DNA from: Planctomycetota bacterium
GTDB taxonomy: Bacteria > Planctomycetota > Planctomycetia > Gemmatales > Gemmataceae
Reading direction: 5' to 3'
Length of the DNA: 52,454 nucleotides
NCBI GenBank assembly: GCA_016873095.1
Contig: VGYC01000025.1
Coordinates: forward strand, 1-52,454
The notes under the pieces are model-generated. The model was given only the letters and a program-made list of their open reading frames with translations. It searched no databases and was not told where the DNA came from. Below, piece by piece: positions 510-41,537 of the stretch. Position numbers and translations under genes: made by a program. Position 1 is the stretch's first letter. Each line of letters starts with the position of its first letter.

Positions 510-626
510 ATGAAAAGAACCATCTTGCTGGCGACAGGATTGTTGAGTTCACTGGCGACCGCCGCGACGGTACGCTGCCAGCCCCCGGCAGCACCATTCG
601 GCGGCGCGGCACGGCCGGAATTCCGG
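510..626 (+). pseudogene. 5' end of a secreted protein, cut off at a junction
   Basis: ATG at 510 (AAGG about 6 bases upstream) starts a typical Sec signal peptide: basic MKR, then the hydrophobic stretch ILLATGLLSSLATAAT, a possible cleavage site, and QPPAAPFGG. After about 39 residues the frame enters the antisense strand of the giant protein's FG-GAP tail. It stays open to 1148 only as an antisense shadow with no protein-like character. So the real gene appears truncated at the palindrome at 615-626. The function is unknown, because only the leader and a few mature residues survive. Signal-peptide character is clear; that it was once a functional gene is inference. Confidence 0.5.
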
Positions 627-9600: not shown

Positions 9601-12600
9601 GCCACCGTGATGGCCAGAATCGTCGGCGCCGTGGTCGTCGCCACGCTGACGCCCGCAGCGGCTGTCGCCGTCGAAGCATCGATCTGGGCCGTGTTGTCGT
9701 TGCTGATGTTGTTGACCGCAACCGAGATGCCGACGGACACGGCCCGGCCGCTCTGCCCGCCGCGAATGGCCAGTCCCACCGCCCCGGCGATCGACGTGAT
9801 CTTCGTCGTGTCGCCGGAATCAACGATGATCGCCTTGGCGGCATTGACGATGGCCCCGCCGCTGATGCCTGCCGTGACCGTGTTGCGCGAGTAGTTGAGC
9901 GACAGCGCGCCGCCGAAGCCAAAGTTCTGCGCCCCGGCACCGCCGATCGACAGATTGAAAATCTGCGTCGTCATGTCGGCCGGCAGCACGACCGGCAGCG
10001 GCTGGTTCCCGCTGGCGCCCATGCCGTTGGCGATGGTGATCGGCGACGAAGGCAGGCTCGACGGATCGTCGAACCCAGCCGAGACGACCACTTTGTCGCC
10101 GGTCGAGGTCACCGTGGAGGCATCGATGTAGGCCTTGATGATGTTGCGACCGTTGCCGGTGATATCGCCGATGGCATTGGCGGCCAGTCCGGCCCCGCCG
10201 GCGGCGATCGAGGCCCCGTCCACGCCGATCGCCACCACGTACAGGGCCGAGCTATCGCTGGCGCTGACCGTGACAGCGTCGGCGGCCGTGACGGTGGCCC
10301 CGCCCGAGATATGCGCGTCCGTGGTGTTCGTGATGCGGTTCACAGTGATGGCGCCGCCGGCGGCGTAGTTCTCCGCGCCATCGCCGCTGAGCGCGATCGC
10401 GACCAGCAGCGGCGACGAGGTTGCCGTGACCGCAAGCGTGCTGCCCGTCTGCACCGACTCGCCGTCGATGTAAGAAACAATGTCGTTGTCGATCAGGTTA
10501 TAGCTGAAAGCCGCCCCGAAGGCGGCCTGGCTGGTGCCGGCCGCGCCGCTGCCGGACACGGACACGAGCGTGGAATTATCCCTGGCCTCGACGACGATGG
10601 CGCCCGTGACGTCGATGCGCGGCAACAACCCTGTCACGGGGTTGTTGCTGATGTGGGCGTCGGTGGTTGTATTGATGATGTTGACCGACGCGTTGCCGGC
10701 CAGCGACAGCGACCTGGCGACGTCGCCGGACAACGAACCGGTGCCGATTAGGAACGTGCTCACCGCCTTGACCGTGAGCTTTCCGCCCGAATTGATGCTC
10801 GAATTGCTGACGTAGGCCGTGACGGTCGCCACATCGTTGTTATCGTCGTCCTTCTGGCGCTTGAACTCGTTGTAACCGAAGGCGACGCCGATCCCAAGAT
10901 TTGTGCCCACGGCGACTGCGAAGCCGACGGAGATGATCCAGGACGTGTCCTCCGCGTGAACCGTGACATCGCCGCTGCCCAGGTTGATGGTCGAATCGGC
11001 AATATACGCCTGCGTTGTGTTGGCGATGATGTTCACGGACACCATGCCCGCGCCGGCGCCGCCGTTGTTCTGGCTGTTGATGCCGACCGTGCCGGTGAGG
11101 GCGATGATGCGCGCATCGGTGTTCGGGTTCTCGTTGCGGGCGTTGATGTTGACGGCGCCGTTCGTGGAGTTGACCGTGGAGCCTTCAATGTATGCCCTGG
11201 TGGTGTTGGTCACCACGTTGACCGCGGCCGCCGCCCCGACGCCGGCCTTGCCGCCGTAGCCGACCCCGCCGGCAACCGTTATCAGCAATGACCTGTCCGT
11301 GGCGGTCAAGTCCGTGTCATCGGCCACGGTTGTTTTTGAGTCCTTGATGTAAGCGGCGATGGTGTGCGTGACAAAGCTCAAGGATACCGACCCGGCCACG
11401 CCGACGGCGCTCGTGCCCGTCGCAGCGGCAACGCCCGCAGTGATGGAGATGAGATTTGCGGAACGCGTTGCTTCCAGCGTGATCGAATTTGCCTGGAGGA
11501 TCGTGTTGGCAATGTAGGCTTGCGTGTCGCTGTGAATCGTGTTCCAGGTGAACGACCCGGCGATGGCCACGTTGTTGTTGGCATTGGCGATCGTGGCGGC
11601 CGCCACCGACCCGGCGAACGACCCGACCGCTGTCGTGTTCTCGGCCGTCAGCTTTACATTGTTGGCCACGATGTTGTTGCCGCTGGCCGCTTGCTGGTCG
11701 TTGATGAAGGCATGGGCGTTGTCCTTGGAAATGAGCGTGACGGCGGCATCGCCGGAGACGGCGACGCCGGAATTGCCGGGATTGTTGTTGCCGACGCCGC
11801 CGTTCGCGCCGCCGTTCATGTTGGGAATCGGATTGACCGCCACGTTGGCGTTGGCCTGGTTCATGGCGCCGTTGCCGGCGCCGTTGGCCGCCGCGGCCTG
11901 CTGATTGGGATCGCCGGACTCGATGGCGGCCGCGAAGGAAGCGGACACCAGCGCGCCGGAGTTCTTGGCCGTCAGTTCCAGGTCGCCGCTCAGGTTGATG
12001 CTGGAGGGGGCCGGCGTGTCGCCGCTGCCGGCGCCGACAATGGCCTGGGAATCGCGGCTGAGCTTGTTGGTCGTGGCCGTGAAGCCGAAGCCGATGTGCT
12101 CGCCCTTTTCGATGCTGCCGGCCACGTTCACCATGGTCGTGCTGTCCGTGGCGGTGGTTTTCAGCGTGCCGCCCGTGATCGTCACGCCCGGCCCGACCTG
12201 CGCCGTGGTCGTATTGTTGATATCGAGGACCGCCACCGTGCCGGCGAAGCCGAAGTTGTCGGCCTCGGCGCCGGACTGGGCCAGCGCGACTTCGACCAGG
12301 TAGGTATTGGCGGTGACGGTGATGCCGCCGGCCGCGGCAATCCTGGCGCCGCCGCCGATGCTCGCCACGGTCGTGTTGCTGGCCACGATCACGTCGATCG
12401 CGCCGCCGATTCCTCCCTTGGCATTCTCCGATCCAAATGGATTGAAGAAGGCCAGTTTGTTGCCGTCACGCACAAGCTCGGTGAGCGCCTCGGGAGCGAT
12501 GAACAGATCGAAGACGCCGACCAGGCGGACGAACTCCATCGACGTCTCTGCCGACCTCTCGACGGTTTGCGAGGCGCTGGTGTAGGCCGCATCCTGGTTG

Positions 12601-30513: not shown

Positions 30514-31473
30514 ATGCTCATTTATCGGTATGCCGATGACGTGGTGGCTTGGGCGCCGGCCAAGGTCAATCTGCACCTGGAGGTCTTGGGCAAAAGGCCC
30601 GACGGTTATCACGAAATAGCCACGCTCATGGTGGCAATCCGGCTCTTTGACACCTTGGTTTTCCGGGACGCGTCCGGCGGCGACATCCGGCTGGCGTGTA
30701 CGCAGGCCGGGCTGTCCCTCGGTCCTGACAACTTGATCGTGCGAGCTGCAAGACTTCTTCAAGATCACACCGGCTGCACGCGCGGGGCCACCATTCGCCT
30801 GGTGAAACGCATCCCCATGGCGGCGGGACTCGCCGGCGGTTCGACGGATGCGGCCGCGACTCTGGTAGGCCTCAACAAGCTATGGCGTCTCGGACTGGGA
30901 AGTACTGACCTCGCTCGTCTGGCAGCAAGGCTGGGCAGCGACATCCCGTTCTTTCTGGGAGGTCCCGCGGCATGGTGTACCGGCCGCGGCGAGATTGTTG
31001 AGCCATTGCCGCTCGGCGCGGTGCTGCATCTGGTCTTGTTGTGCCCGCGCTTTGGCTGTGCCACGGCGGAAGGGTATCGAAGAGTCGTCGTCCCGGAAAA
31101 GCCTCAGAGCGGCGAGGCGATTCGCAAGGCGGTTGCGGCGGGAGACGTCGCCGGCATCGCGGCAAGCCTGCACAATCGCCTCCAGCCGGCAGCGGAGCGG
31201 CTGGCGCCACGGCTCGCGGAATATGCAACAAGGCTGCGACGCCTTGGGCCCGCTGGCGTCCTGATGAGTGGCAGCGGCAGCACGCTTTTCGCCCTGTGCC
31301 GCGACCGTGATGAAGCCAAGCGAATCGCCCGACTTCTCAAGCACGGGTTGGAAAGAGAGGCAGCAGACGACGAGATAGCAGACGAAGAGGATGCACGAGT
31401 GTTCCTGGTACGGAGCCCCCTGGCCACAGAACAAAAGGAGAACAGCTGTGGTGATCACCGAGGTTCGCATTAA
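30514..31473 (+). CDS. ispE: 4-diphosphocytidyl-2-C-methyl-D-erythritol kinase
   Basis: A 319-residue GHMP kinase that phosphorylates the 2-hydroxyl of CDP-ME with ATP in the MEP isoprenoid pathway, in the cytoplasm. Residues 13-35 (WAPAKVNLHLEVLGKRPDGYHEI) carry the conserved Lys17. The ATP loop is PMAAGLAGGSTDAAATL (101-117), and Asp143 in LGSDIPFFLGG matches the catalytic Asp. The GHMP C-terminal motif MSGSGSTLFAL is near residue 255. The last ~30 residues are not family-like and overlap the spoVG start. No clear Shine-Dalgarno precedes the ATG at 30514, so a slightly later GTG is possible. The ispE-spoVG order recurs in planctomycetes, and in Bacillus the two genes are also close. Confidence 0.95.
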   Translation: MLIYRYADDVVAWAPAKVNLHLEVLGKRPDGYHEIATLMVAIRLFDTLVFRDASGGDIRLACTQAGLSLGPDNLIVRAARLLQDHTGCTRGATIRLVKRIPMAAGLAGGSTDAAATLVGLNKLWRLGLGSTDLARLAARLGSDIPFFLGGPAAWCTGRGEIVEPLPLGAVLHLVLLCPRFGCATAEGYRRVVVPEKPQSGEAIRKAVAAGDVAGIAASLHNRLQPAAERLAPRLAEYATRLRRLGPAGVLMSGSGSTLFALCRDRDEAKRIARLLKHGLEREAADDEIADEEDARVFLVRSPLATEQKENSCGDHRGSH

Positions 31474-32050
31474 ACTCATGGAAGACAACAACGAGCGACT
31501 CCAGGCCTTCTGCTCGGTCACGTTCGACGATGCCTTCGTCGTCCGCGACCTGAAGATCATCGAAGGGACCAAGGGACCGTTCGTGGCCATGCCAAGCCGC
31601 AAGCTCACCGACCGCTGCCCGCAGTGCGGCTGCAAGAACCATCTTCGTGCCCGCTGCTGCAATCAGTGCGGCGGCCGGCTCGACGAGGATCGCGCCACCC
31701 GCGACGCCAACGGCCGGGCCAAGCTGCACGCCGACATCGCTCACCCCATCAATTCCAGCTGCCGCGAGGTCATCCAGAACGCTGTCATCAAGGCCTTCCA
31801 GGAAGAGAAGGAACGCTCCAAGCAGCCCGGCTATGTCTCCAACTATGAGGACTACGACGCCGGCGAGTACGAGGACAGCTTCAGCACCCTCGTCAGCGAG
31901 CTGAACACGACGCGCGGAATGCCGCAAGATGGTTACCGCACGCACGGACCGCATGGCCAGCGTGGCACTCACGCACCCAATCATGAGTCGCGAACCTCCG
32001 TCGCCAGCCGCGACAACGACTGTGGCGGCTTCGGCGAAGGCATCCTTTGA
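31448..32050 (+). CDS. spoVG: SpoVG-family RNA/DNA-binding regulator with zinc-ribbon insertion
   Basis: A 200-residue protein. Residues 1-53 (VVITEVRIKLMEDNNERLQAF, FVVRDLKIIEG, FVAMPSRKL) and ~95-118 (HPINSSCREVIQNAVIKAF) are the two halves of the SpoVG fold, known elsewhere as a site-specific nucleic-acid-binding regulator. Between them is a zinc ribbon, CPQC…CNQC (Cys57, 60, 71, 74), absent from Firmicutes SpoVG. The C-terminal ~75 residues are acidic, then Gly/His/Asn-rich and probably disordered. The start is GTG at 31448, with AAGGAG seven bases upstream, inside the end of ispE (26-base overlap), which indicates translational coupling. A GTG at 31451 is also possible. The transcript ends at the hairpin at 32091. 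Confidence 0.93.
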   Translation: MVITEVRIKLMEDNNERLQAFCSVTFDDAFVVRDLKIIEGTKGPFVAMPSRKLTDRCPQCGCKNHLRARCCNQCGGRLDEDRATRDANGRAKLHADIAHPINSSCREVIQNAVIKAFQEEKERSKQPGYVSNYEDYDAGEYEDSFSTLVSELNTTRGMPQDGYRTHGPHGQRGTHAPNHESRTSVASRDNDCGGFGEGIL

Positions 32051-32090
32051 TGCCATTGCCGCAAGATTTGCGATTGCAGTTGAAACGAGG

Positions 32091-32118
32091 AGCCGAGGGC
32101 AGTGCCCCTCGGCTTTTT
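32091..32118 (+). terminator. Intrinsic terminator after spoVG
   Basis: A perfect 9-bp GC-rich stem, AGCCGAGGG (32091-32099) and CCCTCGGCT (32106-32114), with a 6-nt loop is followed directly by T's (the run TTTTT counting the last stem base). It lies 41 bases after the spoVG stop and separates it from the convergent lipoprotein gene. The opposite strand has no T-run, so it works in one direction only. Confidence 0.9.
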
Positions 32119-32136
32119 CGCGCGCGTCGTGCTTGC

Positions 32137-32952
32137 TCACTTGATGAGCGGCCGAGGCGTCGAAACTACCGGATCGGCCTTCTCGTTGTTCATCGCTGTC
32201 GTGCGGATGGGCATGCGATTCTCGAACGGGTCGGGCAAGTTGAAGCGAATGAAGGGCAGCGGCGCAGTGCGGGCCGGCATTGCCCCAGCCAGGGCAGCAT
32301 CCCGGCTTGACTCGCCACTCGGGCCGACCAGCGACGCGCGATCCGGCACATACTGTGCCATGATCGGCAGCGGTACCGGCTCGCCTGAGTCCGGCGACGG
32401 CCAGCGTTCCAGCGCCTGCACGGCGAAGAGAATCTCCTCCGGTCCCTTCGGCGTTTCGCGGATGCTTGCCAGCGGCGTCCCCTCGGACGGGTCGCGCGGC
32501 GTCGTCTTGCCTGCAGGCTTTGCCGCAAAGCGCGCCGGCAAGCCACGAAACTGCGGCAGCGGCGGCGCGGGCTTCTCGATTGACGCCGGCCGCGCCAGCT
32601 GCTTCGGCCCCTGGCTCAGCCTCGTGGCGGCGGCATCGCTGGGCCGCAGCAACTCGTCCAGCAGCTTCGCGCCTTTGTCTGCCGGCGCGGACGCCTTCGC
32701 GGCCGGTTCTTCCTTGCCCTGAGCTCGCGCCACCTGGATGTCCACGGGCGGCGGCTTGGTCGCGGGTGCGGCTTTCACCACAACTGGGTTCACGACGGCG
32801 GGCTTGTTGGACACCGGCTGCGCTTGCTTCTTCTCTTCTTGCCCGAGTGAAGGCGTGGCATCGACGATCGGGACTGCCTCGGTCTTCTTGCAGCCCACGA
32901 TAACCGTGAACGCGCCGATTAGCACAGTCGTCAGCCAGCGATTGCTTCTCAT
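32137..32952 (-). CDS. Proline/lysine-rich lipoprotein, last gene of the export operon
   Basis: A 271-residue protein of unknown function. MRSNRWLTTVLIGAFTVIVGC is a lipoprotein signal peptide, with Cys21 as the lipid-attachment site (VIVGC followed by KK). The mature part is rich in Pro, Ala and Lys with no predicted fold until about residue 150, where short motifs such as PLPQFRGLPARFAAKP and GPEEILFAVQALERWP appear. ATG at 32952 is chosen because GAGG lies seven bases upstream and the leader is then of normal length; an adjacent ATG is at 32955. It starts 50 bases after the YdjY-domain gene, so co-transcription is likely. Confidence 0.8.
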   Translation of the reverse strand: MRSNRWLTTVLIGAFTVIVGCKKTEAVPIVDATPSLGQEEKKQAQPVSNKPAVVNPVVVKAAPATKPPPVDIQVARAQGKEEPAAKASAPADKGAKLLDELLRPSDAAATRLSQGPKQLARPASIEKPAPPLPQFRGLPARFAAKPAGKTTPRDPSEGTPLASIRETPKGPEEILFAVQALERWPSPDSGEPVPLPIMAQYVPDRASLVGPSGESSRDAALAGAMPARTAPLPFIRFNLPDPFENRMPIRTTAMNNEKADPVVSTPRPLIK

Positions 32953-33002
32953 CATCAATCCTCGGTGCTTGTCTTCACTTGAGCGTTGCCGACTCAATCG
33001 TG

Positions 33003-33695
33003 TCATTTTCTCGCCTTGGCCACCTCGATTACCAGTTTCACGGGCGTGCCTTCCTTGGGCAGGTTCTTGGTGTTGGTCTCCAACTTCAAGTATTTTTCCT
33101 CTTCCATCGTCAGGTTCGTCTGAAAGACGGTCTGGTTGGTGACCGGGAAGATGGAGACGAGCGTGCCGGTGAGGTCGGCCCCGTAGACGGTCTCGTCCTT
33201 GGCCGGGTCGGGCTTGCTCATGACCGAGCCGGTGAACCGCCAGCGGACCGACTTGGGGAACGGCTTGCCGTTGCGCGAATCGACCAGCGACTTGTCGATG
33301 GTGATCTTGCGGGCCGCCCCACCACCCTCAGCGACCTCGAGATAAAGCAGTACTTCGGGGCCCTGTGGCTGGTCCTTGCCGCCCATGACGGGCGTGCCCG
33401 GTTTGAGGCCGAGACTCTCGACTGCCTTGTGGATGGCGCTCGGCTTGGCCTCAAAGGTGATCACGGTTTCATGGGCCTTCTTTCCCTTGGGATACGGCCA
33501 GCAGGCGATGACCTCGATGGGATAGGTCTTGCCCTTCAGGTATTCCAGCTTGCGCGGCGCGATCTGCGCGTCGATCTTGACCAGCTTTTTGACCTTGTCG
33601 ACGGTGATGCCTGAGTCATCCTTGCCGGCGCAGACGGGGTCGCCGAGAGATGCCAGGACGCACAGAAAACAACCAAGAATACATCGCGTTGTCAT
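33003..33695 (-). CDS. Secreted YdjY-domain protein
   Basis: A 230-residue protein beginning with a Sec signal peptide (TRCILGCFLCVLASLGDPVCAG). The mature region matches the YdjY-type domain widespread in planctomycetes: KVKKLVKIDAQIAPRKLEYLKG near residue 35, HETVITFEAKPSAIHKAVESLGLKPG near 75, and GKPFPKSVRWRFTGS and YGADLTGTLVSIFPVTNQTVF later. No enzymatic role is known, and no catalytic residues stand out. ATG at 33695 (GGAG six to seven bases upstream) is preferred over 33707. Gaps are 53 bases after the PQQ gene and 50 bases before the lipoprotein gene. Confidence 0.85.
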   Translation of the reverse strand: MTTRCILGCFLCVLASLGDPVCAGKDDSGITVDKVKKLVKIDAQIAPRKLEYLKGKTYPIEVIACWPYPKGKKAHETVITFEAKPSAIHKAVESLGLKPGTPVMGGKDQPQGPEVLLYLEVAEGGGAARKITIDKSLVDSRNGKPFPKSVRWRFTGSVMSKPDPAKDETVYGADLTGTLVSIFPVTNQTVFQTNLTMEEEKYLKLETNTKNLPKEGTPVKLVIEVAKARK

Positions 33696-33748
33696 GACTC
33701 GCTCCAATTCCGCCGGCGATTATTGTCACACGGAGCCTGATGACCGAA

Positions 33749-35260
33749 TTATTTCTCGCCGATGCACACAACCACCGTTGCCTCGCGGGCAAAAGGGCCC
33801 TCGAGGTTGCAGGTGGCAACGTAGAGGCGGCCGGCGTGGACGATGGGGCCGCCATAGACCATGCCGGGGGCCTTCACGTCGCCGTGGCTGCCGAGGTTCA
33901 ACGTCCACTGCGGCTGGCCGGTCTTGAGGTCGATGGCGTGGATGACGCCTTTCAGGTCGCCGGCGTAGACCGTGTTGCCGGCCACGGCGACCGGCGCGAA
34001 TAGCGGCGCCTTGGCCTCGTAGATCCAGCGGCGGTCGCCCCTCGCCACTTCGAAGGCGCGGACCTTGCCATCCGTGGCAGCCACGATGGCGGCGCCGTCC
34101 GCGATGGCGGCGCAGGCCACGATGCCGCCCGGAACATCCTTCTTCCATTTCTCCTTGCCGGTTGCCAGGTCGATGGCCGCCATCTGTCCCTTCGCACCCT
34201 TGAGCAGGTGCGTGTCGTAGCCGATGCTGCTCCCGGAGACGATGGCGACATTATCCTTGATGGAAGCGCCGCCCCACGGATTGAACTTCAGCGGGGCCCG
34301 CCAGCGGATCGTTCCCTTGGCGGCGTCGAGGCAGAACAGGGCGCGGTCGCCTACTTTTTCCTTGTCGAGATACGCCGAGCCGACCAGCACACGGTCGCCG
34401 TCAACATTGACCGGGGCGTCCACGTGCCATTTTTCCTGCCCCTGCTGCCACGTCCGCAACGGCGCAGCGCGCGGCAACTGGTCCTCGCTCGGCGGGATCG
34501 CAAAATCGGGGTCTTTCTTCTTCTGTTCCAGATACTTCGCTTGCAACTTCTTCCAATGCTGGTCGAGAAGCTTGCGGATGGCGGCCACCTCCATCTGTTT
34601 GCCCTCGAACGTGACCTTGTCGAGTTCGACACAGACGACGCCGGCCGCTCCGCCGCCGATGTACACCTTGCCGTTCGCGATCGTCGGCGAACCTTCCAGG
34701 TGCACGAGCTTGCCGGGGATTGGCAGTTGCCACAGCGGCGAACCGCTGGCCACGCTCACGCAGTACAGGCTGGCCCCGTCGGTCTGATGCATGCCGTCGC
34801 CGAACACGAGCCGGTCCTTGTCGATGCCCGGCGAGCTGACGGTGGGCAGCTTCAGAAACGGCGCCGATTTGCTCCACACGACGCGATTGCTCGCCTTGGG
34901 CTCCGTGCTCAGGCACAAAAACGACGCGACGTTGAAAGCGCCGAGGCCGGAGACGAACAGGCGATCGCCGGCCGGGACCGGCGATGCCAGGAAATGCTCC
35001 TTCGTCTTGTAGGCCCACAGGACCTTGGGCGTGGCGGGCCCGGCCTTGCCGTCGGTGTTGCCGGTGCGCTGCGGATTGCCGCGGTAAGTGCCCCAGGGCT
35101 CGACGGCGTGAACCGAAGAGACGAAAGCGAGCAGCAGCACCGGGAGGGCGAGGCTCCTGCCGAGCCGTTTGACCGTTGCGATTGTGGAGGGTTCGCGGCT
35201 CGGCAGGAGCCTTGCCCTCCCGGAAGCGTTCGTCCTCGGCACATCTGAATGCAAACTCAT
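33749..35260 (-). CDS. Secreted PQQ-like beta-propeller protein
   Basis: A 503-residue protein. Residues 34-51 (GRSLALPVLLLAFVSSVHA) make the signal peptide, preceded by an unusually long basic stretch. The rest is a PQQ-type propeller with repeated blade motifs: GDRLFVSGLGAF, GKVYIGGGAAGVVCVE, ATGKEKWKKDVPGG, ATDGKVRAFEVARGDRRWIYEA, AGDLKGVIHAIDLKTGQPQW. Such propellers mostly act in assembly or ligand binding, and residues for a quinone enzyme are not evident. AAGGA lies eight bases upstream of ATG 35260, and the gap to the upstream FG-GAP gene is only 11 bases. Residues 13-40 are encoded by the palindromic repeat at 35141-35222, so a mobile repeat has entered the leader without breaking the frame. 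Confidence 0.9.
   Translation of the reverse strand: MSLHSDVPRTNASGRARLLPSREPSTIATVKRLGRSLALPVLLLAFVSSVHAVEPWGTYRGNPQRTGNTDGKAGPATPKVLWAYKTKEHFLASPVPAGDRLFVSGLGAFNVASFLCLSTEPKASNRVVWSKSAPFLKLPTVSSPGIDKDRLVFGDGMHQTDGASLYCVSVASGSPLWQLPIPGKLVHLEGSPTIANGKVYIGGGAAGVVCVELDKVTFEGKQMEVAAIRKLLDQHWKKLQAKYLEQKKKDPDFAIPPSEDQLPRAAPLRTWQQGQEKWHVDAPVNVDGDRVLVGSAYLDKEKVGDRALFCLDAAKGTIRWRAPLKFNPWGGASIKDNVAIVSGSSIGYDTHLLKGAKGQMAAIDLATGKEKWKKDVPGGIVACAAIADGAAIVAATDGKVRAFEVARGDRRWIYEAKAPLFAPVAVAGNTVYAGDLKGVIHAIDLKTGQPQWTLNLGSHGDVKAPGMVYGGPIVHAGRLYVATCNLEGPFAREATVVVCIGEK
35141..35222. repeat. MITE-like palindromic repeat inside the PQQ gene's leader
   Basis: The arms at 35141-35167 and 35196-35222 (27 nt each) are reverse complements with one mismatch (G/A), around a 28-nt loop. 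One frame of the arm reads GEAPAEP, a peptide shadow I recall from many planctomycete translations, which suggests a high-copy repeat family. Its geometry matches the hairpin at 18164-18241. Confidence 0.8.
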
Positions 35261-35271
35261 TGGAAGTCCTT

Positions 35272-37284
35272 TTAATCGACCAGCGGTGTCTTCTCATCCA
35301 CGCGCACGCGCACCGGCGATGACGCCACCGTGATCTCCTGGGCGCGCGTCACGCCGGAGCTGTAGCGGACCATGAGGCGGTAGCTGCCTGGCTCGAACGC
35401 GAAGCGTGCCAGCGGGGCCTGCTGGCCGCCGCGGCCGTCGCCGCCGGAAATCTCCTGCACGCCGCGGAGCTTGCCTTGCTTGTCCATGATCTGCACCTTG
35501 CTGCCGGTCGCGCCTCCCTTGCCTGCCACGGTGATCGTCACAGGCTGACGCTTGCCATCGGCCGGCGGCGCCCCCAGCAGTACTGCCGATTCTTGTCCTT
35601 CGTTGTTGAGCACCAGGTCGAGGGCGCCGTCATTGTTGAGGTCCACCAGACAAACGGCCTGCGAATTGAAGATCTTCTGCTCGAGGCCGATGCTGGTCGT
35701 GGCGTCCTCGAATGCGCCGTCGCCCTTGTTGCGGAAGAAGCGGTTGGGCCCGCGCAGGCAGCCGACTATCAAGTCCGGCTTGCCGTCGTTATCGAAGTCG
35801 CCATGGGCCGCGCTCGTCGCCCAGCCCGTGAAGGTGGCCAGAGCGCCGGCCTTGGCGGTGACGTCGCTGAAACGACCCTTGCCGTCGTTCTTGAAGAGCT
35901 TGCAGCCATCCTTGAGCGGGACAAACAGGTCAGGCACGCCGTCGCCGTCGAAGTCGCGGAAGACCGGGCTGGCTTTGCCTGTCTTGTAGGCGATGCCGCT
36001 GTCGCGTGCCTCCGCGAACGTGCCCTTGTTGTTGAGAACGAGAATGCCATCGCCGCCGCCGTACAGGAAATCGGGCCGGCCGTCGCCGTTGACGTCGCAC
36101 ACGGTCAGCGTGTCGCCCTTCATGCCGGCGCCGACGCCGTCAACTCCCAGGCCAACCTCGGTGGAAACATCCTCGAACGGCTTGCGGCCAGGTGCTGGAT
36201 TCCCGGTACGGTTGCGGTAGAGCCGCAGGCCATGGTAGCCGTTGGCCAGCAGAATGTCCGGCACGCCGTCGCCGTCGTGGTCGATCCACACGGCTGCCGT
36301 CAGAGTGTAGGTCTTTTCCAGCGGCAACATGGCGGAATCGTCGCGGAAGCTGCCGCCCAGGTTGGTGAGCAACTTCGGACCCGAGGGAGTCGCCAGCAAC
36401 AGGTCCGGCTTGCCGTCGCCGTTGTAGTCGGCCCAGACGGCGGAGCGAGCGCCGCCCGTGATGGGCAAGCCGGCCTCGTTGAGCGATTCGCCGCCGTTCA
36501 TGAGCAGCGTTACCTTGCCGCCGCCGACGAGACACAGGTCCATCTTGCCGTCGCCATCGATGTCGGCACAGGAGATGGCCTGGGCTTCCGGATCGACGCG
36601 GCCCAGAGCGGAAAAGTGCGTGAAGCCGGCCATGCCGTTGAGCCGGCGAAAATCCTCACCGCCCCAGCCGACGAAATCGCGCTTCGGGTTGTAGTCCAGA
36701 AGTTTCAGGCTCACGCGCAGCCGCTGAATCTTGGCGCGACGATTATGCAAGTCCTCCAGGTTGCCGTTGATCATGCACGGGGCGACGGTCTCGCGGCCTG
36801 CGACCATCTCGGCAACGATGCCGGCGAGCTTTTCCGGCTGGCCGGCAAAACTACGGAGCAGAAACGGCTCGGCGTGGCTATGGTTCCACCACTCGCCGCC
36901 GCCGTAGGCCTGGTACCACCAGGTGCCGCAGCAGGTCTCGCTGGCGCCGCCGTTGTGGAAGAAGATGGCCGCCTTGCCCGGCTCGGCCCAGTCCATCTGC
37001 GGCTTCCACTCGTTGGGTCGCAAGCCGCCTCGCCCGATGTTGTGCTTGATGAGGTCCTGCGGATGCTTGCCCTTGATGTCGCGTTCCTTGCGATAGATGA
37101 TCAGGTTTTTCTCGCGATCCACCGACACCACGCGCATGAGCATGATGTGCGTGGACTGGGAAACGACAGCGCCCAGGCTCATCGGCGCCTCGACATAGGC
37201 TGCCGAGCGCTGCACGAAACAGGCCGCGCACAGGCCGCTCCCCGCAATGGCCAGGATCAGCAGACGTCCGTGATTGAGCTTCAT
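35272..37284 (-). CDS. Secreted FG-GAP/VCBS-repeat protein with a conserved N-terminal domain
   Basis: A 670-residue protein. A signal peptide (residues 1 to about 30, LLILAIAGSGLCAACFVQRSAA) is followed by an N-terminal domain of about 190 residues containing VVSQSTHIMLMRVVSVDREKN, GKAAIFFHNGG and the striking ETCCGTWWYQAYGGGEWW. From about residue 235, seven or more FG-GAP repeats carry calcium-binding D-x-D-G-D-G-x-x-D loops (ADIDGDGKMD, ADYNGDGKPD, IDHDGDGVPD, CDVNGDGRPD, RDFDGDGVPD, DFDNDGKPD, VDLNNDGALD), giving an integrin-like propeller. A beta domain closes the protein (GSYRLMVRYSSGVTRAQEITV). GGAGG five bases upstream supports ATG 37284 over 37296. It sits in the operon between the TPR and PQQ genes. 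Confidence 0.88.
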   Translation of the reverse strand: MKLNHGRLLILAIAGSGLCAACFVQRSAAYVEAPMSLGAVVSQSTHIMLMRVVSVDREKNLIIYRKERDIKGKHPQDLIKHNIGRGGLRPNEWKPQMDWAEPGKAAIFFHNGGASETCCGTWWYQAYGGGEWWNHSHAEPFLLRSFAGQPEKLAGIVAEMVAGRETVAPCMINGNLEDLHNRRAKIQRLRVSLKLLDYNPKRDFVGWGGEDFRRLNGMAGFTHFSALGRVDPEAQAISCADIDGDGKMDLCLVGGGKVTLLMNGGESLNEAGLPITGGARSAVWADYNGDGKPDLLLATPSGPKLLTNLGGSFRDDSAMLPLEKTYTLTAAVWIDHDGDGVPDILLANGYHGLRLYRNRTGNPAPGRKPFEDVSTEVGLGVDGVGAGMKGDTLTVCDVNGDGRPDFLYGGGDGILVLNNKGTFAEARDSGIAYKTGKASPVFRDFDGDGVPDLFVPLKDGCKLFKNDGKGRFSDVTAKAGALATFTGWATSAAHGDFDNDGKPDLIVGCLRGPNRFFRNKGDGAFEDATTSIGLEQKIFNSQAVCLVDLNNDGALDLVLNNEGQESAVLLGAPPADGKRQPVTITVAGKGGATGSKVQIMDKQGKLRGVQEISGGDGRGGQQAPLARFAFEPGSYRLMVRYSSGVTRAQEITVASSPVRVRVDEKTPLVD

Positions 37285-37405
37285 TCCGACCTCCAATTTG
37301 CGATTCGTCGATTCTCAGTTCCTGGGATTCGTTGCGTTGCCACCCCCCTCTCAGCACCCCGGCAACGAATCCTGGCGGCGGGCGTATCGCCGTAACGGTC
37401 CCAAA

Positions 37406-40400
37406 CTAACCGGCCCGCAGCGTCTTCAGTCGTTCCCGGGCGGGTTCCGCCCAGCGGCTGGAGGCGTAGTCGCGAATCAGGCGTTCCAGCAAGCGGATGG
37501 CCTGGTCGTTCTGCTTCATCTCCGAGAAGGCGCGGGCGGCTTCCAGCAGGGCAGGGGCGCTCAGGTCCGGATAATCATAGGTAAACGGCACGGCCAGGAG
37601 CGCGGCGGCGGCCTCGGCGTACTTCTTCTGCTCCATGCGGCACATGCCGATCTCGAGCTGCGCCTTGGCCGCGGTTTCGGTCGCGGCCCGGTTCACGATC
37701 TGCGCGTAGACGTTGACCGCCTGGTCGTACTGCTTCTGCTGCTGCAGCGCGTATCCCATGCCGTAGCGGGCCTCGTCCACCAGCGGACTATTCGGAAAGG
37801 CGGCGACACAGCGTTCATGGCTTCGCCGGCTTTCCTCCCAGTTCTTCAACTGTGCAAACGCGAAACCGAGCCGGACGAGAGCGACGTCGCTCACGCCAGC
37901 GATGTTTTGCAACGGCGGCTGGTCGCGGAAACCAATGAGCTTCTTGATGGCCTCGGCCCAGTCCTTGTCGTTGATCAAACATTCGCCGGCGCGATATTGC
38001 GCCTGGCCGATGAGGTTGCTCTTGGGATTGGCGGCAACCGCGTTGAATTGCGCCAGGGCGGCCTTGCGATCCCCCTTGGCCGCGTACACGGCGCCGAGGC
38101 GCAGCCGGACCTTTTCCGTAAGCTCGGCAGGCGGCTCCTTGTCGAGCGCCTCGTTCAGGAGCTTTTCCGCCTCGTCGAACAGCGTGCGCTGCGTGAGCAT
38201 CTCGGCCAGCTCGAAGCGTGCCTCGATGGCCAGCGGCTGATCGGCGAAGTCGGCGATCAGGCTTCTGTAATGGCCCCAGGCTTTCTTCTCGGCGAGCTGA
38301 ACCGGGACGGCCTTGAGCGGCACGACCGGCGGCGGCAGGTTGGCTTCCTGCGGCTTGCGCTTGTTCAGTTCCTCGCGCACCTTGGCGGCGTGGGCAGCCT
38401 CAAGCTCACGGGCGCCCAGCAAACGATTTCCCCACGCCGCCTCGTAAAGCATCCGCGCCCGCGGACCGACGGCGTCGGCGTTCTTCTTGATCGCTTCGGC
38501 CTGGCCTTCGAGGAATTGCACGGCGTCGGCGATCGACTTGAAGCCCTCGCCTTGCAGCGTCTGCAGGAGCTGGACTTCCTGTGGGTTCTTGGTGCCGGCG
38601 GGTATCTTGCGGGCCGCTTCGAGTTTCTTCTCGCCTTCCTCCTTGAGGCATTGCGCGAAGCGCAGCGCCGCCTCCATGGCCTCGGGGGTGTTGGCGCTTT
38701 GCTTGATCACCATGTCGAACAGCGATCGCGCTTCGGGCAGCTTGCCGGCCTCGCGCAAGGCCAATCCCTGATGATAGCGCAGCAGTCCGACCCAGTTGCT
38801 GCGCTTGGGATCCTTGGCCAGCTCCGGCTCGAGCTCGGGCCGCGACTTGGCCAGCATGTCGGCGGCCTCGGCGGCGCGATTTTGACTCCGCAGCAGCGTG
38901 GCCAGCTCCATCAGACCCATCGCTGCCGCCTCCGTCCGCTTCCACGGGTCGCCGGTGAACTTGCGCAGCTCGTTGATGGCGCCGTTGGCATCGCCGCCAG
39001 CTGCCTGCGCCTTCGAACGCTCCAGCAACGCCTGACCGATCAGCGGATCCTTCGGGAACTGCGTGATGATCCGGTCGTAAGCCGCGCGCGCGGCATTGTA
39101 GGCTTGCGTCCGCTCGGCGGGCTGACCCTGCAGGCCGGCCTGTCGCTGCCGGCACAGGCCCAGCTTCAACAGGGCATCCGCCGCGAGCGGGCCCTTCGGC
39201 TGGCTGTCGATGAAGCCTTCGAGCAGCTCGGCAGCGGCCTTCATCTGCTCTTCAAGCTTGCCGGCTTCGAGCGCATCCTCCGGCGTGCCCCTGGGCGCCA
39301 GGCGAATGATGCAGTCAGCAATGATGTATGGCGTCGCCGCCTGATCGCCGTTGCGCTCGGCCACGGGAATGCTCGCGAACACCTGCTTGGCCTGTTCGAG
39401 ATCGCCCTTGTTGTAGTAGGTCAGCCCCAGGCTGTAACGAGCCGTGTTGATCTGCGGGGCTTCCGGAAACTTGGCGATGACGGCCTGATAGCGCTTGATC
39501 GTGTCGTCCTGCCAGCGGGCCATCTCCTTGGCGCGCTCCGCAGCATTGGGGTTCTTCTCGGCCGCCAGGATGCGGAAATAGCTGTTCTCCGCTTGCCGGA
39601 ACATCACCGCCGGCAGCAGCGGACTTTGCGGATACTTCTCCAGGAAGCGAGCGCAGGCCTTGTCCGATTCGTTGAAATCGCCCGCCAGGTGCAGAGCGCT
39701 GATGAGCCGCTGGGCAATCTCCTCCTCGCGCCGCGGCAAGAACTTGTCGTTGAGGAGCTGGTTGTAGGTGCCGGCGGCCTCCTTGTGCTGATTGAGCTGC
39801 TGCTGCGTGTCGGCGATCTCGAGCAGGATCTCGCCGCGCCGCTCGCGGGCCTCGGGGTCCGTGCCCATCTGACCGGCACGGTCGGCCGCCTGGCGATAGG
39901 TCGTCAGCGCTATGGTCAGCGCCTTCTGAAAACCAGCCTGGTTTGCTTGCGCGTCGGGCGCCATGCCTGCCTGCGCCTTGCCGAGCCACAGCAACACCTG
40001 GTCGCTCACATGCTTCTCGCGCTCGACCAGCGGCGTCAGCGTCTTGATGGCCTCGGCGAAATCCTTGAGCTGCACCTGGCAGAAACCGATGCGCAGCTCC
40101 GCTTCGCCGCGCAATGGCGACTGCGGATCAAGCTTGATGAACTCGACGAAGCGATCCTTGGCGTCGCCGAATTTGCCCCCCTCATAGAGAAGCACGCCGA
40201 GATAGAAGCGTGCACGCTGCACGTGGTCCGGCAGCGGCCCACGCACCAGCTCTTCGAGCCGCAGCTTCTCGACCGGGTCGTTCTGGAACTTCGCCGGATT
40301 CTGCAGGAGCAACGCGGCGTCCTTCTGGCTCTTGGCAAAATCGGCAAGCACGCCGTCGTAATGCGTCTGGGCCTCGGCACGTTCATCGGCGGCGTGATGC

Positions 40401-41194
40401 GTGCGGGCCAGCAGGTAGCGGGCGTGATTGCCGTATGCGGGATCGGCGAAGGGAGCCAGCAGGCTCAGCGTCTTCTCCGCCGCTGCATGGTCCTTCATCA
40501 GGAAGCAAGCGAAACCGTGCAAGTAACGACCCAGATCGCGATAGCGGCTCTTGGCCAGAACCGGATCCTGCAAGAAGTCGGCGGTGGTCTGCCGTGCTTC
40601 CTTGACCTTCATGCCGCGCAGTTCCATCTCGGCCTGGTCGCAGCGGGCGCGGGCGGACCATTCCTGATCAGCAGCCGCCTCCTTGTTGTCCGCATTCTTG
40701 GCGCGGGCGGTGAAGGCCGCGGTTGCCAGCGCGAATTGCTGCCGGGCCTCGTCGAAACGCTGCCGGGCAGCGTCGCGGCGCTGGTTCGCCTCCTGCGGCT
40801 TGGCGTCGGCGATGGCCAGTTCCTGCACGCCCTGGCCGCGCTGCGCGAGACCAAGATGATAGAGCACTTGCGGATGCTCGGGCAGGTTCTTCTGCCCGGC
40901 CAGCCCTTGCAGCAGGTCGCGTGCCTCCTGGTAATTGACAGGCGGATTCGCGAGCAAGGCCAGCGCAAGCCCGTAGCGGGCGCTCGGCGCCTCCTTGTGC
41001 CCACCGAACTTCGCCAGGAATTCCTTGTAGCGAGCCACGGCAAACGGATAGCTCTTCTCGTTGAACGCCTTGCGGGCGCTGTTGAGCATCATGGCCGCTT
41101 GATCGGGGGCCTGGGCGCGGGCGTTTTCACTCAGCATGACGAATGCAGCGGTGAACAGTGCAAGACCAATGGTGCCATGGTTGATCGCTTTCAT
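37406..41194 (-). CDS. Large secreted tetratricopeptide-repeat protein
   Basis: A 1,262-residue protein with a Sec signal peptide (HGTIGLALFTAAFVMLSENARA, cleavage near residue 27), then TPR-type helical repeats over nearly its whole length: ARKAFNEKSYPFAVARYKEFLAKFGG, AARQRFDEARQQFALATAAF, AKDRFVEFIKLDPQSPLRGEAELRIG, ARAAYDRIITQFPKDPLIGQALLE, YDQAVNVYAQIVNRAATETAAKAQLEIG. These resemble the YbgF/BamD-like outer-membrane-associated TPR class. ATG 41194 is favoured (AGGAG ten bases upstream) over 41212. The protein could be the scaffold of the complex encoded by this operon, which is inference from context. Confidence 0.9.
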   Translation of the reverse strand: MKAINHGTIGLALFTAAFVMLSENARAQAPDQAAMMLNSARKAFNEKSYPFAVARYKEFLAKFGGHKEAPSARYGLALALLANPPVNYQEARDLLQGLAGQKNLPEHPQVLYHLGLAQRGQGVQELAIADAKPQEANQRRDAARQRFDEARQQFALATAAFTARAKNADNKEAAADQEWSARARCDQAEMELRGMKVKEARQTTADFLQDPVLAKSRYRDLGRYLHGFACFLMKDHAAAEKTLSLLAPFADPAYGNHARYLLARTHHAADERAEAQTHYDGVLADFAKSQKDAALLLQNPAKFQNDPVEKLRLEELVRGPLPDHVQRARFYLGVLLYEGGKFGDAKDRFVEFIKLDPQSPLRGEAELRIGFCQVQLKDFAEAIKTLTPLVEREKHVSDQVLLWLGKAQAGMAPDAQANQAGFQKALTIALTTYRQAADRAGQMGTDPEARERRGEILLEIADTQQQLNQHKEAAGTYNQLLNDKFLPRREEEIAQRLISALHLAGDFNESDKACARFLEKYPQSPLLPAVMFRQAENSYFRILAAEKNPNAAERAKEMARWQDDTIKRYQAVIAKFPEAPQINTARYSLGLTYYNKGDLEQAKQVFASIPVAERNGDQAATPYIIADCIIRLAPRGTPEDALEAGKLEEQMKAAAELLEGFIDSQPKGPLAADALLKLGLCRQRQAGLQGQPAERTQAYNAARAAYDRIITQFPKDPLIGQALLERSKAQAAGGDANGAINELRKFTGDPWKRTEAAAMGLMELATLLRSQNRAAEAADMLAKSRPELEPELAKDPKRSNWVGLLRYHQGLALREAGKLPEARSLFDMVIKQSANTPEAMEAALRFAQCLKEEGEKKLEAARKIPAGTKNPQEVQLLQTLQGEGFKSIADAVQFLEGQAEAIKKNADAVGPRARMLYEAAWGNRLLGARELEAAHAAKVREELNKRKPQEANLPPPVVPLKAVPVQLAEKKAWGHYRSLIADFADQPLAIEARFELAEMLTQRTLFDEAEKLLNEALDKEPPAELTEKVRLRLGAVYAAKGDRKAALAQFNAVAANPKSNLIGQAQYRAGECLINDKDWAEAIKKLIGFRDQPPLQNIAGVSDVALVRLGFAFAQLKNWEESRRSHERCVAAFPNSPLVDEARYGMGYALQQQKQYDQAVNVYAQIVNRAATETAAKAQLEIGMCRMEQKKYAEAAAALLAVPFTYDYPDLSAPALLEAARAFSEMKQNDQAIRLLERLIRDYASSRWAEPARERLKTLRAG

Positions 41195-41267
41195 CCTTCG
41201 CGGTCTCCTCATGCAGGCGCGGGTTCAAGTTGCGAGTGAATGCGAGGCTGGTCAGGGGCTCATGGGC

Positions 41268-41537
41268 TCATGAGTTCGTGGGCGGCTTGAAGCCGATCTT
41301 CTCTCGGATAGTGTCCGGCAGCGCTTGCAGCATGCGCAAAACTTCAGCGAGCACACGGCCGTGCTCAGCGAGCACGTGGCTGTGCTCGATCAACGTGGAC
41401 TCGATTCGGCCAAAGCGCTCCGCGTTGATGCGATCCATTTCGGAAAGCCTCCCTATGAACGCCGCCTGGTTCTGGATCAGCATGGCCATCGCTTCCTCCA
41501 GCTTGCCGTTGCCGTCGGCTTTCGATTTCGATTTCAT
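41268..41537 (-). CDS. Small coiled-coil protein
   Basis: An 89-residue protein with charged MKSKSKADGNGKLEE, then amphipathic helix with heptad-like spacing (MLIQNQAAFIGRLSEMDRINAERFGRIESTLIEHSHVLAEHGRVLAEVLRML), ending DTIREKIGFKPP. It has no signal peptide or membrane segment, so it is cytoplasmic. AGGAG with six-base spacing precedes the ATG. It lies 73 bases upstream of the TPR gene on the same strand and may be the first gene of that operon. No function is known, though short helical proteins of this kind recur in planctomycetes. Confidence 0.75.
   Translation of the reverse strand: MKSKSKADGNGKLEEAMAMLIQNQAAFIGRLSEMDRINAERFGRIESTLIEHSHVLAEHGRVLAEVLRMLQALPDTIREKIGFKPPTNS

What the first reader, a model, noticed from the sequence alone, without database searches (positions are those of the whole stretch)
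32137..41537. Undescribed six-gene export operon: coiled coil, TPR, FG-GAP, PQQ, YdjY, lipoprotein
Gaps are 73, 121, 11, 53 and 50 bases on one strand. Five products carry export signals; one is a lipid anchor, two are beta-propellers and one is a 1,262-residue scaffold. Together they look like a single envelope complex, with the TPR protein as the frame, the propellers as binding units and the lipoprotein as anchor. I know of no described system with this set.
Basis: inference. Interest (0 to 1): 0.7.

Follow-up and report, generated by a model that had tools for sequence, protein, structure and literature searches.

The report
Conserved five-gene secreted-protein operon, planctomycetes
Five neighbouring genes for secreted proteins (a large helical-repeat scaffold, two beta-propellers, a YdjY-domain protein and a small tail protein) recur side by side in Gemmataceae-type planctomycetes and a few related bacteria, and the four larger ones are kept or absent together, so they probably work as one unit at the cell envelope, although what that unit does is unknown.

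Summary
The ORFs and gaps are real. Five genes (TPR, FG-GAP, PQQ, YdjY, small lipoprotein; 32137-41194, minus strand) form a conserved system; the sixth, the 89-aa coiled coil, does not belong. In 59 genomes, own included, TPR, FG-GAP, PQQ and YdjY are all found in 24, none in 28 and some in 7; in four of those seven the cluster runs off a contig end. They co-occur even when unlinked (6 of 24). The order recurs in Phycisphaerae and in MAGs labelled Verrucomicrobiota, where PQQ and YdjY are often one polypeptide. A second fusion joins the FG-GAP protein's N-domain to YdjY. That ~190-aa N-domain has no Pfam, NCBIfam or PDB-sequence match. AlphaFold2 gives a CRTAC1-like fold for the rest of the FG-GAP protein (Z 37.4) and a BamB/YxaL-type propeller for a PQQ homologue. 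The small protein's lipobox is variable; its C-terminal motif is better kept. Most likely this is an exported solenoid-propeller docking assembly. That it functions as a unit is well supported; one physical complex is inferred; its task is unknown. Searches of an open-access library found no description.

The parts
37406..41194 (-). Exported TPR alpha-solenoid protein, 1,262 aa, first conserved gene
   Evidence: matches at E<=1e-60 in 27 of 59 genomes, of which G019 is only a weaker partial match and G030 a 311-aa frame
35272..37284 (-). Exported FG-GAP protein, 670 aa: unnamed N-domain followed by a CRTAC1-like propeller and C-terminal domain
36619..37194 (-). N-domain (FN), residues 31-222 of the FG-GAP protein; conserved, no Pfam/NCBIfam/PDB-sequence match; also fused to YdjY in other proteins
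35281..36633 (-). CRTAC1-like part (residues 218-668)
   Evidence: 9etn_A Z 37.4, rmsd 3.3, 436 aligned; phmmer E 6.8e-10
33749..35260 (-). Exported PQQ/BamB-type beta-propeller, 503 aa; its first codons overlap a palindromic repeat at 35140-35223
   Evidence: fold from a homologous fusion; repeat
33003..33695 (-). Exported YdjY-domain protein, 230 aa
   Evidence: NF040466 118.3 bits (cut-off 50)
32137..32952 (-). Small exported protein with lipobox (Cys 21) and a conserved C-terminal motif; an alternative start at 33006 overlaps the YdjY stop
32206..32379 (-). C-terminal motif region of the small protein (in the window PDRASLVGPS ... PFIRFNLPDPFE)
   Evidence: alignment A2; motif also read downstream of fused PQQ-YdjY genes in L172, L173, L177, L179
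41268..41537 (-). 89-aa coiled-coil ORF: coding-like but NOT part of the conserved system

Best explanation
The five genes 32137-41194 encode one functional system of exported proteins. SHOWN: the order TPR > FG-GAP > PQQ > YdjY > small protein recurs; the first four are largely present or absent together, even when unlinked; YdjY is fused to PQQ in one clade and to the FG-GAP protein's N-domain in a paralogue family; the fifth protein's C-terminal motif recurs. INFERRED: the products meet outside the cytoplasm as a docking assembly. The 1,262-aa TPR solenoid would be the frame. The CRTAC1-type propeller and the BamB-type propeller would sit on it as binding units. YdjY would be a module attached to the PQQ propeller. 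The small protein would dock through its C-terminal motif and, in lineages with a lipobox, tether the assembly to a membrane. The most likely site is the periplasm or outer-membrane face, and the most likely action is holding or positioning other envelope proteins or polymers rather than catalysis.
For: Co-occurrence of TPR, FG-GAP, PQQ and YdjY in 59 genomes: all four in 24, none in 28, some in 7; pairwise Fisher p 2e-10 to 2e-17, and within the family alone (37 genomes) 3e-5 to 1e-9 (from; relatedness not corrected). All present though not adjacent in 6 of the 24 (G004, G011, G025, G031, G032, G033; G004 on short contigs). Taking the best match of each gene per locus, TPR>FG-GAP>PQQ>YdjY in 39 of the 80 named loci and part of that order in most others, many cut by contig ends. 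PQQ-YdjY in one ORF in 8 loci. FN-YdjY in one ORF in 10 ORFs of 9 of 59 genomes, the window's own among them (4 of the 10 read and profiled). Gene-tree distances of the four correlate at 0.83-0.91. No shared flanking genes. Folds. Leaders. Motif of the fifth protein.
Against: No physical contact is shown; pair predictions of the mature proteins could not be run. The linker in the modelled PQQ-YdjY fusion is low confidence. Co-inheritance alone gives high tree correlation, and Fisher tests ignore shared ancestry. TPR and propeller repeats are versatile and say little about partners. By a rough pattern only 16 of 35 well-scoring small proteins show a lipobox, so anchoring is not a fixed function, and 21 of 65 loci with YdjY gave no small-protein match, some for lack of sequence. 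Exceptions to the order: L153 has its TPR on the other strand; in L094 and L095 a second YdjY precedes a second FG-GAP gene; in G035 YdjY is missing from the main cluster (L096) and present only at that second locus. G030 has no FG-GAP orthologue that I found.
Confidence: 0.55

Rival explanations
1. The five proteins form one pathway or programme but not one complex: co-regulated exported proteins that act at separate steps, for example binding and processing an extracellular polymer or protein.
For: Co-occurrence without linkage needs only a shared function. The operon is broken up in 6 of 24 genomes. Fusions directly tie only YdjY to PQQ and YdjY to FN.
Against: Two different fusions, a solenoid plus two propellers and a short conserved motif are typical of contact partners (general knowledge, not tested here).
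Confidence: 0.22
2. It is an outer-membrane assembly accessory, working like the BamB/BamD/lipoprotein part of the BAM machine: PQQ propeller as BamB analogue, TPR as BamD analogue, small lipoprotein as tether.
For: BamB-like fold (BamB rows up to Z 37.1, crystal structures about 36) and sequence hits; TPR scores 115.5 against the BamD model cut-off of 81.4; lipobox in the window protein.
Against: BamB equivalog cut-off not reached (90.3 against 285.2); TPR has no lipobox cysteine, and its BamD score sums stretches of a 1,262-aa repeat protein that also exceeds the YbgF cut-off (222.3 against 90.1); no BamA in the cluster; 28 of 59 genomes have none of the four genes, though such bacteria must also build outer-membrane proteins.
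Confidence: 0.1
3. It is a calcium-dependent surface adhesion or matrix-binding apparatus built round the CRTAC1-type propeller, with the other proteins as its presentation scaffold.
For: CRTAC1 fold Z 37.4; Foldseek rows include fungal GlcNAc-binding lectins; seven DxDxDG-type motifs counted by eye in the sequence; many relatives carry an inserted stretch with a '..VFLNG..'-type motif that I take from memory to be a jelly-roll; it has no Pfam hit.
Against: The window's own copy lacks that insert; no ligand evidence; the lectin matches are fold-level, about 20% identity.
Confidence: 0.12
4. Chance neighbours: unrelated exported genes that merely lie together.
For: True, as far as seen, for the 89-aa coiled-coil ORF.
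Against: For the others, the order in 39 of 80 named loci, joint presence and absence, and fusions.
Confidence: 0.01

Closest known systems
CRTAC1 (cartilage acidic protein 1) family
   Same: Residues 216-668 of the FG-GAP protein superpose on murine CRTAC1 (Z 37.4, 436 aligned); 5 of the 8 distant plasmid-borne relatives listed are annotated 'CRTAC1 family protein'.
   Different: Extra ~190-aa N-domain outside the CRTAC1 match; operon partners; 20% identity.
BamB / YxaL / Rv3035-type PQQ-like propellers
   Same: Fold of a homologue of the PQQ protein (YxaL Z 39.9, Rv3035 Z 37.9, BamB up to Z 37.1).
   Different: Below the BamB equivalog cut-off; in one polypeptide with a YdjY domain in some lineages.
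YdjY-domain proteins (NF040466; E. coli YdjY)
   Same: Domain score over the cut-off.
   Different: E. coli YdjY is listed as a 4Fe-4S ferredoxin-type protein (one table row of PMC9068703 seen); the window protein has a single cysteine after its leader.
Membrane coat-like proteins of PVC bacteria (PMC2799638) and Gemmata pore-membrane propeller proteins (PMC5287468)
   Same: Same groups of bacteria; alpha-solenoid plus beta-propeller parts (found passages only).
   Different: Those coat proteins carry propeller and solenoid in one chain; here they are separate exported proteins. PQQ, TPR and FG-GAP do not occur in the main text of PMC5287468. Identity with the Gemmata proteins listed there was not tested.

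Membership tests
YdjY domain (NF040466) | Score over the curated cut-off of 50 bits | tested here: met
   118.3 bits, residues 30-225, model 1-180 of 181
4Fe-4S ferredoxin-type YdjY of E. coli | Cysteine cluster for an iron-sulphur centre | tested here: not met
   One cysteine after the leader in the window protein (read)
CRTAC1 family | FG-GAP propeller plus C-terminal domain fold | tested here: met
   9etn_A, Z 37.4, rmsd 3.3, 436 aligned, model 216-668
CRTAC1 family | ASPIC/UnbV Pfam domain at the C-terminus (family name recalled) | tested here: inconclusive
   Not listed by Pfam at E<=1, while the fold match covers that part
BamB | TIGR03300 equivalog cut-off of 285.2 bits | tested here: not met
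   90.3 bits
BamD (YfiO) | TIGR03302 cut-off of 81.4 bits | tested here: inconclusive
   115.5 bits, but summed over a repeat protein (7 stretches) that also exceeds the YbgF model
BamD (YfiO) | Lipoprotein leader with lipobox cysteine | tested here: not met
   Leader MKAINHGTIGLALFTAAFVMLSENARAQA has no cysteine
PVC membrane coat-like proteins | N-terminal propeller and C-terminal solenoid in one polypeptide | tested here: not met
   By sequence families the TPR protein shows solenoid-type matches only and the propellers lie on separate genes; the TPR protein was not modelled
PQQ-dependent dehydrogenases | Score over TIGR03075 cut-off of 480 bits | tested here: not met
   47.5 bits
Single envelope complex | Direct binding between members | not testable with these tools
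   No pair prediction or binding data available

The most novel reading that the evidence does not exclude
An undescribed extracytoplasmic machine of Planctomycetota and, if the MAG labels hold, Verrucomicrobiota: a secreted solenoid-plus-two-propeller scaffold with a new ~190-aa domain (FN), a YdjY module that moves between partners by fusion, and a small tail-motif protein as adaptor, in effect an outward-facing counterpart of solenoid-propeller coats and pore scaffolds.
Probability: 0.3. Interest if true: 0.75.

Novelty: new variant of a known kind. Interest (0 to 1): 0.5.

Why it matters
Planctomycetes have unusual envelopes and many repeat proteins of unknown use. This gives a compact set of five genes, four of them largely kept or absent together, with an unnamed domain whose invariant residues (among them E86, Y94, Q95, H107, E109, P110, R114 in alignment A1) could mark a specific site. 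It turns 'TPR protein', 'CRTAC1 protein' and 'PQQ protein' annotations into one hypothesis that deletion, pull-down and localisation can test.

Tried and rejected
Rejected: the downstream ORF 31337-32140 as a seventh gene. It overlaps the lipoprotein stop but is antisense to spoVG, with non-coding-like codon GC.

Rejected: the 89-aa coiled coil as a member. Its neighbours elsewhere were not identified (only an ORF list of L189).

Rejected: a conserved neighbour outside the cluster. Clustering of flanking ORFs in L108-L187 gave no shared flank among the 25 largest groups printed; the largest (18 loci) lies at varying places and strands.

Considered and not followed: a 24,005-aa open frame reported for G038. 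The matching named locus holds a run of N, which such a frame would read through; I take it to be no gene and did not try to read that stretch.

Led nowhere: PDB sequence searches for YdjY at E 1, FN at E 1 and TPR at E 1e-8 gave no match. Paper searches for the gene set returned nothing describing it (listings; YdjY alone), in an open-access library only. The promoter and terminator scan is at chance level. A Verrucomicrobiota survey was not done (one search gave an error). hhalign of FN against the PQQ-YdjY alignment found no relation (probability 1.5%). The first-pass co-occurrence table counted fused paralogues as FG-GAP or YdjY; one search replaces it with those removed (G029, G030 for FG-GAP; G038 for YdjY).
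Full report
OBSERVATION. The last gene has a second possible start that overlaps the YdjY stop by four bases. The cluster lies between a divergent DUF5684 gene and convergent SpoVG and GHMP-kinase genes, so it is bounded on both sides. The ORF after the lipoprotein is antisense to spoVG and lacks coding-like base composition.

PARTS. TPR: 1,262 aa, TPR-type matches. FG-GAP: 670 aa; an AlphaFold2 model from 46 sequences has mean pLDDT 89.5. Its residues 216-668 superpose on murine CRTAC1 (Z 37.4, rmsd 3.3, 436 aligned). Residues 31-222 are a separate conserved domain (FN): 27 sequences, 70% mean column identity, 30 invariant positions, with no match in Pfam at E 0.1, NCBIfam at E 0.01 or PDB sequences at E 1. 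PQQ: a BamB-type repeat protein; a model of the homologous PQQ-YdjY fusion from L173 (mean pLDDT 91.1) matches tetrathionate hydrolase, YxaL, Rv3035 and BamB. The window's own PQQ, YdjY, TPR and small protein were not modelled. YdjY: over the NCBIfam cut-off. Small protein: lipobox in the window, C-terminal motif shared with relatives.

CO-OCCURRENCE. Four whole-genome searches of the same 59 genomes (37 of the family with the own genome counted, 7 same order, 15 same class) were made with YdjY, FG-GAP, PQQ and TPR. Counting only stand-alone YdjY and FG-GAP matches that reach past the N-domain, all four are found in 24, none in 28, and some in 7. Of the seven, G002, G010, G016 and G029 have the cluster running off a contig end; G038 carries masked sequence; G030 lacks FG-GAP; G019 has only a weaker TPR match. 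Pairwise Fisher p-values are 2e-10 to 2e-17 over 59 genomes, 4e-6 to 4e-12 over the order (44), and 3e-5 to 1e-9 within the family (37). They take genomes as independent, so they overstate. Linkage: 15 of the 24 carry the four genes in order on one contig; 6 carry all four but not together: G031 has TPR about 150 kb from the rest, G032 has TPR-FG-GAP, PQQ and YdjY at three places, G033 has FG-GAP-PQQ, TPR and YdjY on three contigs, G025 has TPR-FG-GAP and PQQ-YdjY-small protein on two, G011 and G004 have them on four (short contigs in G004); G014 and G040 are split between contigs; G035 has TPR-FG-GAP-PQQ-small protein together and YdjY elsewhere beside a second FG-GAP gene. Retention of all four when dispersed is the strongest sign of a shared function rather than mere co-transfer.

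WIDER DISTRIBUTION. A scan of one genome per species (84,980 species) with the FN alignment found 98 relatives, of which the best 80 were kept (it reaches only sequences that carry one of two short peptide patterns). By record titles they are Gemmataceae and other planctomycetes, Phycisphaerae/Phycisphaerales (L160, L168, L177, L183, L184), Verrucomicrobiota-labelled records (L172, L173, L179) and one unnamed bacterium (L187). Mis-binning of MAGs cannot be excluded. Taking the best match of each gene per locus: TPR>FG-GAP>PQQ>YdjY in 39 of 80 loci (24 of them with the small protein at the default threshold), shorter stretches of the same order in most of the rest (many cut by contig ends), and one with YdjY missing (L127); L153 has a TPR gene on the other strand; seven loci (L165, L169, L176, L180, L181, L182, L185) hold only the fused paralogue, L174 the fused paralogue plus a weak separate YdjY match, and L178 a 402-aa FN protein. 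Against a fixed order: in the two second loci L094 and L095 a YdjY gene precedes a divergent FG-GAP gene. Some named loci are the same genomes as the unnamed ones, so the two surveys are not independent. In an even draw of 392 genomes of the phylum, FN was found in 8, own included, so across the phylum it is rare.

FUSIONS. In L160, L172, L173, L177, L179, L183, L184 and L187 PQQ and YdjY are one ORF; Phycisphaerales locus L168 has them separate. In a midpoint-rooted concatenated tree the seven of these that have all four genes group together. Separately, FN is joined through a middle stretch to YdjY in ORFs of 608-637 aa: 10 ORFs in 9 of the 59 genomes, the window's own genome among them (C106), by identical open frames; four were checked by profile and read. 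YdjY therefore has two different covalent partners, both products of this operon or their paralogues.

FIFTH GENE. With relaxed thresholds, 44 of 65 loci that carry YdjY show a small-protein match just downstream and 21 show none, some for lack of sequence (9 duplicate rows dropped). Of the 44, 35 score at least 20 bits, and 32 of these 35 carry the tail motif (DP[ST]-like, then PDPF-like) by a pattern test; nine score 6-18 bits, of which five (L151, L154, L175, L177, L179) carry it and four (L129, L136, L144, L183) do not. The motif is also there in L172, L173 and L179 (Verrucomicrobiota-labelled). By a rough lipobox pattern 16 of the 35 have a lipobox; L068, L069, L070, L071, L082, L109, L110 and L112 are among those without. 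Starts of these ORFs are not known, so the lipobox count is approximate. The tail is better kept than the lipid anchor.

THE SIXTH ORF. The 89-aa coiled coil has convincing relatives only in G003 and G029, on contigs other than the cluster's, plus a weak hit in G041. It is probably a real small gene that happens to lie upstream.

COEVOLUTION. For the 39 loci with all four genes plus the window, FastTree distances correlate at 0.83-0.91 between genes, against a maximum of 0.30 in 200 label permutations per pair; 16-21 of 37 splits are shared. This shows joint inheritance, which vertical descent alone would also give.

MECHANISM. The best reading is an exported docking assembly: solenoid frame, two propellers, YdjY module, tail-motif adaptor. 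Shown: conservation, co-occurrence, fusions, folds. Inferred: physical contact, TPR as the frame, location, and the purpose of holding envelope proteins or polymers. Rivals are a shared pathway without one complex, a BAM-like accessory, and a calcium-dependent adhesion apparatus.

KNOWN SYSTEMS. The set resembles BAM accessory proteins and PVC solenoid-propeller coat proteins in kind of parts, but fails defining features of each (membership table). From PMC2799638 and PMC5287468 I saw found passages only; from PMC9068703 and PMC3210124 one table row each; from PMC3733652 found passages. Searches for the gene set in the open-access library gave no description in their listings; most subscription papers are not covered, so 'undescribed' is limited to that.

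REPEAT IN THE PQQ GENE. The first codons of PQQ (35140-35223) are a near-perfect palindrome (28-nt arms, 96%) that belongs to a dispersed repeat family of the genome (96 matches counting both orientations and partial ones). It encodes the start of the leader up to 'RSLALP', ahead of 'VLLLAFVSSVHA'. One arm is also found between YdjY and the small-protein gene in L109.

CHANGES AT CHECKING.

Noticed in passing
window 35140-35223: A palindromic repeat (28-nt arms, 28 nt between) with many copies in the genome lies inside the 5' end of the PQQ gene and encodes part of its apparent signal peptide; several other copies lie at or near the starts of long ORFs. Y1-transposase (RAYT-like) genes exist in the genome (5 matches), but exact arms were not found in the loci fetched round them. 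Palindromic repeats inside genes are known elsewhere (PMC3733652, passages).
   Followed up: partly
L098:7395-9239 (own genome C106): Fused paralogue: FN domain, middle stretch with a '..VHINGQ..' motif, YdjY domain, in one 615-aa ORF.
   Followed up: partly
L102:144-2170 (own genome C196): A second FG-GAP copy whose N-domain lies in another frame and is poorly conserved (31% against 56% for the rest): perhaps a decayed or frameshifted duplicate.
   Followed up: no
L094:2-2530 and L095:7400-10643: Second loci in G035 and G026 with a YdjY gene followed by a divergent FG-GAP gene (about 40% identical to the window's), without TPR or PQQ beside them.
   Followed up: no
L076:9542-11992, L087, L104 and others: Many FG-GAP orthologues carry an insert of about 150 aa near residue 360, absent from the window's copy.
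   Followed up: no
L172:14377-17202, L173:14981-17611, L179:15351-17972: In the Verrucomicrobiota-labelled loci a further large PQQ-repeat protein (874-942 aa) follows the operon on the same strand.
   Followed up: no
window 549-14702 (-): An ORF of 4,717 aa on the minus strand, with long overlapping plus-strand ORFs; not examined.
   Followed up: no
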